From Plumapathes pennacea (Eukaryota; Cnidaria; Anthozoa; Antipatharia; Myriopathidae), in contig OZ038471.1 of the NCBI GenBank assembly GCA_964036295.1, forward strand, positions 12,604,184 to 12,668,183: 64,000 nucleotides of DNA, given 5' to 3'. Made by a program: the position numbers and the translations under genes. Below the pieces are notes generated by a model, which did not search any database, had not been told where the DNA came from, and saw nothing but the letters and a program-made list of their open reading frames with translations. Each line of letters begins with the position of its first letter. Positions within the stretch are counted from its first letter, which is position 1. Of this stretch, positions 29,601 to 32,600 are shown in pieces.

Positions 29601-32600
29601 TACGTGGCTTGGCTCACGACTTCGTCTTGGAGGACTTCGGTTTTCTTTCACATAAACATTTATGGGAATACAATAAAACTGAGCGAAGCAAGATCTACCA
29701 ACGGTCACTTTTTCCTCAGCCATTTCCTAATTTTCAAATAATAACGCCATCTGTTCCACTGATTGTTTGACCTTCATGGCACCGAGCCAAAATCTCGCAA
29801 CAACAACATAAATGCACGCAGAGTGAAATTTTGATTCCAAACAAAAGTCAGATTTTCTGACGCTTTACTTGTATCAGCAAGAATAATACAAAGTAAAAGA
29901 ATACAAAGTACCTTCAAGTTCACCCTCATACTAAACAGTTCCATATAATCCGCTATCAAGCGCTTGTCAAGAATCGCCGTCTTTACACAGGTTCTCGTCT
30001 TTGTATCTCGAGCGCCTTCGTTCAGCTTGTTCCTTCAAGTTCTCAAGGTTCTGGATATTAGATTCTTCGTACATTTCTGTACAGTTGTGCATAGTTATGC
30101 AGTTCATTGATAAATTCATTGCATTTGCTTTCATGGCTTTCAATGTGGCTTTTGAGGCTGAACGGACCGACCCAAGCCAAAACCGCTCAATGAAATTTAG
30201 TATGGGTCTACCGCAGCCGGCGTATGCGTTTGTAAGTAAGATGAGCGGTCCATAAAATAATCCACAGAGCCAACTAAGGCAAGCAACTTGCTGTCTTCAA
30301 AATGGCGAAACTGCTTGCTCGACAAGTCACGTGATCACAACGTCATCACAAATCACATGATAATATCAACCAATCATCGCATGCAGATCTCTAACCCAGA
30401 AAAATAAAAAAAAAAAAAAAATCGCTGCATTTTATAGCTTGTGACGTCACAAGCAATAACTCAGCACCGAGAGCAATACGAAAGCTTCTTATATGGCGGG
30501 TAGCAACTTGCTGACACATATTTCTGGTGACAAGCGCTGTTTCCACTTCAAATGATGCAAATGTTGACATTAATGTCGTTGAAGTTACGAGTGCGACCGG
30601 AGCCTAAGAATTGAAATTCTAGCACTAAGTTGTTGCTCTTAAGTCATCAAACAAACTCTCTTAAATTCCGCGATTCATAAATTCTCCATTTCAAAAATAC
30701 ACTATGAAGCTAGAACAACGCGGTCCACTAATTTCAGCATGGTCTTTTAATTTTTCGAAAAAAAAAAATACTAGTTGTATTACTTTTACAGGGCAGCTGT
30801 ACCATGTGATCGAAAGGTACAAAATGTCCCTCTTCTTTGATTTAAGTCTATGCAACTATAGAGCTAAGAATCTAGTATAGCAACATTTTTAAACATATCT
30901 GTTGGTTGTTAGGGCCGATGATTGGCGAAATAGTGAAGCACATGAAGAGCTACAGAGAAGACCCGAGTAAAGTGAAAAAATTGTACATTTACTCGGGGGT
31001 AAGTTAAAGTTCAACACTGAAAACCTTTAGGGGAAGTGCGCTAGGCTTAAAGAAATAGACATCAATCTACACATCACACATTTAGATTGTACTTTGTACT
31101 GCGAAGTTATACTTTAGCCGTCAAGTTTTAACAATGTTTAATGTTTTTTTTTTGTTTCTTAAAAGACCCTCTTCCAACCCCAAAAATACCATGCGATACT
31201 TTAATAATAAAATATCAGTATTTTTCATATTCCTTGATCTTGATATTAAAGTCGTCTTCAAAGTGTTCAAAAGCCAACCTTCTTTTAGTGTACATGGTAC
31301 AGTAATTGTTGTCTATAATTTTCCATACGAATATTCTGGCTTTGATTATTTGCTAGAAACTAGTTTGTTTTATTTTAGCACGGTGCCACTGTCGCTGCTC
31401 CGATGATTGCACTTGGTGTATTTGATAACATTGTCCCGCTTTATTGCTCCGCTCTCTTGGTTGAACTCTATGGAAGTGATTACGGGTAAGCTATACAAAG
31501 GTCTGTGGAAGAAGAAATCCTCAAAGAATGAATGAATGAATGAATGAGTGAGTGAGTAACTTTAGTAACGTGTCAGAAATCCTTTAGCGTCGCCACTAAT
31601 TGGGGACACTAGACAATACAAAATAACCACTGCGAATAAGAAATTGAATGAATCACGAAAAATGAAAATAATAATATATAATAATAATAATAATAATAAT
31701 AATAATAATAATAATAATAATAATAATAATAATAATAATAATAATAATAATAATAATAATAATAATAATAATAATAATAATAAGCCTGTTTGACCGAAAT
31801 GTTGACGCAATCTTTTCTTCGAAGTCAAGTGCTACACGCAAAGGAAGGAGAAAAAGAATCGTGTGTGTTATACTTTTGCGTTAAAAAAGTGTCGATTGCG
31901 CAATGCTGTAGTATTTCCGTCAAATTAATTCATATAGTCTGCCAAGCACGTTCTCAAAATTTGAAGTTAGTCGGCCGCCGTAGTACGGGAAAAAGGAACA
32001 CTGATTTTCCAATCTTGAATTCATAGGCAGTACAATTAAATAGGCTTCCTGTGCGATTTTTTTTACTCTAGACTGCATGCACCTTGACTCAGGCATGCAT
32101 ATTTAATGAGCTCGAATTGTTTTGTACGTGAACCCGCTCAAAACAGCATGATTTCTCCCAGAATCAACGCAAAACTTGAACGGTTTACTTCAAATTATAC
32201 ACGGGCTTCAGACCTAGTCATATTTCAAAGGGCTTGTGAACGATTCTCGCTGCAATCACCACTTGTCAGATTACAGCATTTGTTACAGTTTTAGTCTTTT
32301 TTTTTTTTTTTTTTTTTTTTAAACATATTTGGGCGTTTACCCCAAGAACTCATGGCTCATCGAGGGGGCTTACGTATACATAAATTTTACGGTTTTACAG
32401 TCAAATATTAATAGATAAGAATAAAGTATAAAGAACCACAAATACACAAATGCACACACAACACACACGAGGATCATAAACGGATATAAAGTTAGAAGAA
32501 AAAGAGTAGGAAGAGGAAAAAGAAAAAAAAGGAAAAAGAGGAAAAAGACCGCTGGCATTCCTATAGGATGTCGACCAGCCTCATTGATTATTCACAAAAC

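What the first reader, a model, noticed from the sequence alone, without database searches (positions are those of the whole stretch)
31379..31485. Acid phosphatases B and C lack the Asp of the catalytic His-Asp pair
In prostatic/lysosomal acid phosphatases the second catalytic His is followed by Asp, the proton donor. B (31379) and C (50549) both encode YSGH followed by Gly-Ala-Thr, while the rest of the active site (RHGDRAP, VRSSDVDR) is intact. Two full-length, splice-intact copies sharing this loss suggest a changed mechanism, a non-catalytic binding role, or a donor supplied elsewhere.
Basis: partly seen in the sequence, partly recalled or inferred. Interest (0 to 1): 0.75.

Follow-up and report, generated by a model that had tools for sequence, protein, structure and literature searches.

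The report
Acid phosphatases missing their proton donor
Three neighbouring animal-type genes encode acid-phosphatase proteins that keep the phosphate-grabbing part of the active site but lack the acidic residue that normally helps the reaction along, so they are probably slow, choosy enzymes or binding proteins rather than ordinary phosphatases.

Summary
Exon 10 of copy B (31379-31485) and copy C (50549-50655) begins His-Gly-Ala-Thr where prostatic acid phosphatase (PAP) has His257-Asp258-Thr-Thr. Both genes splice cleanly (12 exons, GT-AG, 372 aa), and the residues aligned with Arg11, His12, Arg15, Arg79 and His257 are kept. The loss reaches further than reported: partial copy A reads His-Ser-Glu-Thr, so all three tandem copies lack the Asp, and A alone has Glu at the next position, as in MINPP phytases (HAE). 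Coding sequence is under purifying selection (dN/dS 0.21-0.33), and no alternative His-Asp exon was found. Published mutants suggest the consequence: AppA-HAT keeps 0.1% of kcat; ecAGP D290A loses about 1000-fold in kcat on glucose 1-phosphate, yet exceeds wild type about tenfold in kcat/KM on p-nitrophenyl phosphate. Best reading: a natural donor-less histidine acid phosphatase with an intact phosphate clamp and nucleophile, selective for good leaving groups, with slow turnover. A purely binding role, as in flea salivary proteins, is the main rival. No structure, expression data, species name or HD-bearing paralogue was available.

The parts
31379..31485 (+). Copy B exon 10, HGATVAAPMIALGVFDNIVPLYCSALLVELYGSDY(G); His codon 31379-31381, Gly (in place of Asp) 31382-31384, Ala 31385-31387
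50549..50655 (+). Copy C exon 10, identical to B over 107 of 107 bases; HGAT
8980..9086 (+). Copy A exon 10, HSETVAAPMIALGVYDYIVTPYCSAFLIELYGSDY(G); Ser 8983-8985 in place of Asp, Glu 8986-8988 at +2
14623..35161 (+). Copy B gene, 12 coding exons: 14623-14736, 22029-22121, 23044-23139, 23613-23699, 24862-24927, 25103-25201, 26065-26157, 26453-26576, 30913-30998, 31379-31485, 34725-34829, 35113-35161 (stop TAA); start could be ATG 14611
   Evidence: open frame of 372 aa, 11 of 11 introns GT-AG
41391..52391 (+). Copy C gene, 12 coding exons: 41391-41504, 44296-44388, 45126-45221, 45983-46069, 47322-47387, 47561-47659, 48522-48614, 48946-49069, 50103-50188, 50549-50655, 51938-52042, 52343-52391 (stop TAA); start could be ATG 41379
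   Evidence: open frame of 372 aa, 11 of 11 introns GT-AG
863..11554 (+). Copy A gene, 3' part (exons 4-12): 863-949, 4767-4832, 5366-5464, 6296-6388, 7025-7148, 7863-7948, 8980-9086, 10117-10224, 11506-11554. Exons 2 and 3 were not found in 1-13000; exon 1 was not searched for
   Evidence: open frame of 272 aa, stop TAA
22029..22121 (+). Copy B exon 2 with the nucleophile motif RHGDRAP (Arg41, His42, Arg45 of B)
23613..23699 (+). Copy B exon 4 with VRSSDVDR (Arg111 of B = PAP Arg79)
30913..30998 (+). Copy B exon 9, ends ...LYIYSG directly before the His codon
14623..14736 (+). Copy B exon 1, signal-peptide-like MGSFVLSSRPGLCGILVLACLLSEPFSCASKKLLMAHV; C counterpart 41391-41504
   Evidence: search for ATG exons with a hydrophobic core, conserved in B and C; no signal-peptide predictor was run, so secretion is inferred

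Best explanation
B and C are intact, selected acid phosphatases of the prostatic (PAP) kind, probably secreted, whose general acid/base has been lost while the residues that hold and attack the phosphate are kept. Predicted mechanism: Arg41, Arg45, Arg111 and His287 clamp a phosphate group and His42 attacks it. With no Asp to protonate the leaving group, only substrates with good leaving groups (aryl, acyl or pyrophosphate types) phosphorylate His42 at a useful rate; with no base to activate water, the phosphohistidine is slow to break down. They would act as slow, leaving-group-selective phosphatases, possibly as phosphate-ester holders that turn over rarely, not as general acid phosphatases. 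Copy A may have partly regained a donor through Glu at +2 (HSE, compare MINPP HAE). Shown here: sequence, gene models, conservation, selection. Inferred: secretion, substrate range, slow turnover, and A's Glu as donor.
For: Motif and gene models. PAP relationship of B: phmmer E 9.6e-75 to 8xj4, 1.9e-74 to 1cvi; 136 of 335 aligned positions identical to PAP; PF00328 E 1e-26 for B and 3.8e-12 for A (C not scanned). Five of five other catalytic residues kept in B and C, about 1% by chance at 41% identity if positions were independent. dN/dS B-C 0.209, A-B 0.325, A-C 0.313, Fisher p 3.9e-6, 1.9e-6, 8.4e-7 on rounded counts. B-C exons 96.7% identical against 89.7% and 83.7% for 60-base flanks. Enzymology: AppA D304A (HAT) kcat 10.5 against 10,209 per s, Km 32 against 161 uM (PMC9181005). 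ecAGP D290A about 10^3-fold lower kcat on glucose 1-phosphate but about 10-fold higher kcat/KM on pNPP, Bronsted slope -0.91 against -0.05 (PMC8938923).
Against: No activity, expression or structure data. The mutants are bacterial enzymes; in PAP itself substitution of Asp258 'severely impairs' activity (review PMC3676848). Tighter binding is not general: in ecAGP D290A kcat/KM on glucose 1-phosphate fell about 10^4-fold against 10^3-fold for kcat, so KM rose about tenfold. Purifying selection is equally expected for a pure binding protein, and A-B dN/dS in exon 10 alone is higher, 0.43 on 105 bases. B-C exon 2, with the nucleophile motif, is hardly more conserved than its flanks (84/93; flanks 48/57 and 51/58). 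No species name and no HD-bearing paralogue could be obtained. An acid from another loop cannot be excluded: 13 positions are acidic in B and C but not in PAP.
Confidence: 0.5

Rival explanations
1. B and C are non-catalytic binding proteins (pseudo-acid phosphatases) that hold a small ligand, phosphorylated or not, like the flea salivary proteins.
For: Flea XcAP-1, -2 and -3 are PAP-fold proteins without the catalytic His residues, inactive on pNPP, that bind biogenic amines and leukotrienes (PMC10728186). Losing the donor in AppA lowered Km about fivefold.
Against: XcAP-1, -2 and -3 lost both catalytic His, and XcAP-1 the dimer strand; [quoted passage not shown] B and C keep both His, the three Arg and the residues aligned with PAP Trp106 and His112; a pure binder need not keep them.
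Confidence: 0.27
2. The donor is supplied elsewhere and activity is ordinary: in copy A by Glu at +2 (HSE, compare MINPP HAE), in B and C by a carboxylate from another loop or by a water chain.
For: MINPPs have Ala at the Asp position and Glu one residue on as the presumed donor (PMC3969271, PMC7762957). Copy A has Ser-Glu there. In ScVip1 the residue at the donor position (Glu991) is not needed: its Ala mutant is more active (PMC11836120). 13 positions are acidic in B and C but not in PAP.
Against: B and C have Ala at +2. Putting HAE into AppA did not restore activity (kcat 12.5 against 10.5 per s for HAT), because the Glu took the wrong rotamer without a supporting Phe. ScVip1 cleaves a pyrophosphate, which may need no acid.
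Confidence: 0.17
3. The copies are decaying duplicates, and the Asp loss is an early step to pseudogenes.
For: Tandem duplicates in a repeat-rich region.
Against: dN/dS 0.21-0.33 with p below 1e-5; no stop, frameshift or broken splice site in the 33 exons modelled over three copies; the Asp is absent from all three, hence probably lost before the split, and they stayed constrained.
Confidence: 0.04
4. Gene-model or sequencing artefact: the real transcript uses another exon 10 with His-Asp, or the base calls are wrong.
For: No transcript was available. His-Asp-Thr-Ser is encoded at 19574 and 28307 in the duplicated insert of B introns 1 and 8.
Against: Those two read GLKHDTSHDEITS, not acid-phosphatase sequence. 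tblastn of four exon-10 peptides finds three exon-10 places, none with Asp; the other hits have E from 0.38 to 4.1. Of 5 AG|CAY-GAY sites on the plus strand, none opens into acid-phosphatase sequence. Three copies agree.
Confidence: 0.02

Closest known systems
Prostatic acid phosphatase (PAP; PDB 8xj4, 1CVI, 1ND5/1ND6, rat 1RPA)
   Same: About 41% identity over the mature chain, RHGDR, the Arg79 motif, second His, WQPIPVH strand, 4 of 6 Cys, signal-peptide-like start.
   Different: Asp258 is Gly (B, C) or Ser (A); Thr259 is Ala (B, C) or Glu (A). PAP Cys183 and Cys281 are not matched; a Cys lies at B309. One N-glycosylation sequon in B against three in PAP.
MINPP / HAE phytases (BtMinpp, BlMINPP)
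   Same: Copy A has H-x-E with Glu at +2, the position of the presumed MINPP donor.
   Different: Overall sequence is PAP-like; none of the 33 PDB sequences matched by the profile at E up to 1 is named MINPP. B and C lack the Glu.
Flea salivary pseudo-acid phosphatases (XcAP-1/2/3)
   Same: Secreted PAP-fold proteins of a duplicated animal gene family that lost catalytic residues. The profile weakly matches 8gdl, 'Secreted salivary acid phosphatase', E 6.6e-11; that this is XcAP-1 is my inference.
   Different: XcAP-1, -2 and -3 lost the two His (His12 to Gly, His257 to Ser or Pro); here both His stay and the Asp is lost.
AppA D304A (HAT) and ecAGP D290A laboratory mutants
   Same: Same chemical lesion: donor Asp removed, rest of the site intact.
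   Different: Engineered, in bacterial enzymes; here natural, in an animal-type PAP, in genes under purifying selection.
PPIP5K/Vip1 phosphatase domain
   Same: A branch-2 histidine phosphatase without the canonical donor Asp.
   Different: It has Glu at the position, a GAF insert, and acts on inositol pyrophosphates.

Membership tests
Histidine phosphatase branch 2 / PAP-type histidine acid phosphatase | Significant match to the family profile | tested here: met
   PF00328: B E 1e-26 (94.7 bits, cut-off 23.6); A E 3.8e-12; C not scanned, 357 of 372 residues identical to B
Histidine phosphatase branch 2 / PAP-type histidine acid phosphatase | RHGxRxP nucleophile motif | tested here: met
   RHGDRAP in B and C; not seen for A, whose exon 2 was not found
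Histidine phosphatase branch 2 / PAP-type histidine acid phosphatase | Third Arg (PAP Arg79) and second His (PAP His257) | tested here: met
   Arg111 and His287 of B; same in C and A
Histidine phosphatase branch 2 / PAP-type histidine acid phosphatase | HD proton donor | tested here: not met
   HG in B and C, HS in A. Members by homology, not by catalytic motif
Histidine phosphatase branch 2 / PAP-type histidine acid phosphatase | Phosphatase activity | not testable with these tools
   needs purified protein
Histidine phosphatase branch 2 / PAP-type histidine acid phosphatase | Two-domain PAP fold | not tested
   no structure was predicted; expected from 41% identity
MINPP (HAE) subfamily | H-A-E donor triplet | tested here: not met
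   B and C HGA; A HSE, close but with Ser
MINPP (HAE) subfamily | Overall similarity to MINPP rather than PAP | tested here: not met
   The four best PDB matches of B are PAP; none of 33 profile matches at E up to 1 is named MINPP
Flea-type pseudo-acid phosphatase | Loss of one or both catalytic His | tested here: not met
   Both His present in B and C
Flea-type pseudo-acid phosphatase | Binds amines or leukotrienes, no phosphatase activity | not testable with these tools
   needs binding and activity assays

The most novel reading that the evidence does not exclude
A natural, selected, donor-less histidine acid phosphatase subfamily, probably in an animal: B and C work by nucleophilic catalysis alone, forming a long-lived phosphohistidine only from activated phosphates (a slow phosphoryl acceptor or sensor), while sister copy A is evolving a replacement donor one residue along. 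One tandem cluster would then show loss and regain of a general acid.
Probability: 0.25. Interest if true: 0.68.

Novelty: new variant of a known kind. Interest (0 to 1): 0.47.

Why it matters
In the papers seen here the role of the HD aspartate was dissected by engineering bacterial phytase and glucose-1-phosphatase. Evolution seems to have made the same change in an animal-type acid phosphatase and kept the genes under selection, next to a sister copy with an acid one position along. That allows a direct test of what a histidine phosphatase does without its general acid, and of whether a MINPP-like donor can arise in a PAP scaffold, which engineering in AppA did not achieve. It also warns that pNPP, a common assay substrate, could make such proteins look like normal phosphatases.

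Tried and rejected
Contiguous degenerate search for the motif: nothing, because the motif spans an intron. Related loci in viral contigs: none with the alignment (82 pattern stretches, 0 relatives) or with B alone (4 stretches, 0 relatives). Plasmid tblastn with B: no match. The one genome-contig scan gave 4 bacterial relatives from 60 pattern stretches; 4 of 4 keep HD. They are too distant to date the loss.

Alternative exon with His-Asp: not found. Pseudogene: rejected on dN/dS and intact frames. Membership in MINPP or the flea type: rejected as above. Other open frames: 10 of the 17 stop-to-stop frames of at least 110 aa were scanned in Pfam; one weak, below-cut-off QRICH1 match. The output was cut in the middle.

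Paper searches listed no paper whose title or abstract start tells of a PAP-type enzyme that lost only the Asp. The library is open-access only, and these nine searches are not exhaustive. Eight papers were opened, in passages or single sections, none read whole.

Full report
What is there. The window looks eukaryotic (GT-AG introns; 35-41% GC in 4-kb steps) and holds three tandem, same-strand copies of one gene. I rebuilt the models from conserved exon blocks and splice sites. B (14623-35161) and C (41391-52391) each have 12 coding exons, consistent phases, GT-AG introns and a 372-residue product. A (863-11554) shows exons 4-12, also intact; its exons 2 and 3 were not found in 1-13000 and probably lie before the window. 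Exon 1 of B and C has a hydrophobic stretch typical of a signal peptide; it was picked from a list of candidates because it is conserved in both copies. Secretion is inferred.

The observation. Exon 9 of B ends ...LYIYSG and exon 10 begins CAC GGT GCC ACT at 31379, giving YSG-HGAT. C is identical over exon 10 (107 of 107 bases). A gives YSG-HSET. Prostatic acid phosphatase is the best solved relative of B (E 9.6e-75 for 8xj4, 1.9e-74 for 1cvi, 2.2e-74 for 1nd5; 136 of 335 aligned positions identical). It aligns His257-Asp258-Thr259-Thr260 with H-G-A-T of B and C and H-S-E-T of A. The other catalytic positions (Arg11, His12, Arg15, Arg79, His257; roles) are kept in B and C; in A the two that lie in the modelled part are kept. 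Keeping five of five at 41% background identity is about a 1% event if positions were independent. The finding is right, and broader than stated: the Asp is missing in three of three copies. D to G is one base change (GAY to GGT) and G to S another (GGT to AGT), so one ancestral loss before the copies split is the simplest history; without an outgroup copy this is inference.

Not an artefact, not decay. tblastn of four exon-10 peptides finds three exon-10 places, none with Asp; the remaining hits have E from 0.38 to 4.1. Two His-Asp-Thr-Ser codings (19574, 28307) lie in an insert duplicated in B introns 1 and 8 and do not read as acid phosphatase. None of 5 AG|CAY-GAY sites on the plus strand opens into acid-phosphatase sequence. 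Nei-Gojobori dN/dS is 0.209 for B-C, 0.325 for A-B and 0.313 for A-C, with dN below dS (Fisher p 3.9e-6, 1.9e-6, 8.4e-7 on rounded counts). For exon 10 alone A-B gives 0.43 on 105 bases, and B-C has no change. Exons are 96.7% identical between B and C against 89.7% and 83.7% for the 60 bases up- and downstream, but exon 2 (84/93) is hardly better than its flanks (48/57, 51/58). Four of four bacterial relatives recovered (Legionella brunensis and three metagenome-assembled genomes) keep HD, as do the five PDB chains whose alignments were shown, of 12 matched.

How it most likely works. In this family the His of RHG takes the phosphate, and the Asp of HD protonates the leaving group and then acts as a base in freeing the enzyme (PMC9181005, passages; PAP review PMC3676848, passages). 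Two engineered relatives show what happens without it. AppA D304A (motif HAT, nearest to HGAT) keeps kcat 10.5 of 10,209 per s and its Km falls from 161 to 32 uM; the authors take breakdown of the phosphohistidine as rate-limiting (PMC9181005, sections 7 and 9 and Table 1). ecAGP D290A loses about 10^3-fold in kcat and 10^4-fold in kcat/KM on glucose 1-phosphate, yet on p-nitrophenyl phosphate its kcat/KM is about ten times that of wild type, with a Bronsted slope of -0.91 against -0.05 (PMC8938923, passages). Binding therefore tightened in one mutant and weakened in the other, so I do not commit on affinity. What both support is dependence on the leaving group or slow turnover with the nucleophile still at work. 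I expect B and C to accept phosphate on His42 from good leaving groups and to turn over slowly. A consequence is that pNPP alone may not distinguish a normal from a donor-less enzyme, although PAP with Asp258 replaced is reported as severely impaired (substrate not stated in the passage seen).

Copy A. Glu at +2 is where MINPP enzymes carry their presumed donor (HAE; BtMinpp E325, PMC3969271, passages; BlMINPP Glu401, PMC7762957, passages). A could thus have a replacement donor. I could not test whether A has such a neighbour. A also reads SSEMDR for SSDVDR in exon 4.

Rivals. Flea salivary acid-phosphatase-like proteins are the clearest precedent for loss of activity in this fold: XcAP-1, -2 and -3 lost both His, do not cleave pNPP and bind amines and leukotrienes (PMC10728186, abstract, passages and section 9; cat flea PMC9844850, passages). 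B and C differ by keeping both His and the residues aligned with PAP Trp106 and His112 (the dimer role of these two is recalled). In ScVip1 the donor position holds Glu991, and its removal activates the enzyme on an inositol pyrophosphate (PMC11836120, passages), so a histidine phosphatase can work without an acid there. I put a slow, leaving-group-selective enzyme at 0.50, a pure binder at 0.27, a donor from elsewhere at 0.17.

Limits. No structure prediction was run (spliced proteins fall outside the stated rule of the tool). The search of the window's own genome was unanswered ten times. No call names the species. No expression data exist here. Nine literature searches (listed under Tried and rejected) listed no report of a PAP-type enzyme that lost only the Asp, but the library is open-access only and most listed papers were seen as title and abstract start.

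Noticed in passing
8980-9086: Copy A lacks the Asp as well, but has His-Ser-Glu, a MINPP-like H-x-E motif in a PAP-like protein.
   Followed up: partly
863-949: Copy A reads VRSSEMDR where B and C have VRSSDVDR; the Arg aligned with PAP Arg79 is kept.
   Followed up: no
18779-21115 and 27512-29858: Near-identical stretches (97-99% in blocks of 257-300 bases) in B introns 1 and 8, about 8.7 kb apart: a recent duplicate or inserted element inside the gene.
   Followed up: no
26065-31485: B and C lack Cys at the positions aligned with PAP Cys183 and Cys281 and carry one at residue 309, leaving five Cys in the presumed mature chain, so one is probably unpaired.
   Followed up: no
2514-2846: Minus-strand open frame with a weak, below-cut-off match to the Pfam QRICH1 domain (E 8.8e-6); possibly a mobile-element remnant.
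   Followed up: no
36719-38464: Inverted repeat arms of 217 bases, 94% complementary, 1312 bases apart, with two smaller inverted repeats inside.
   Followed up: no
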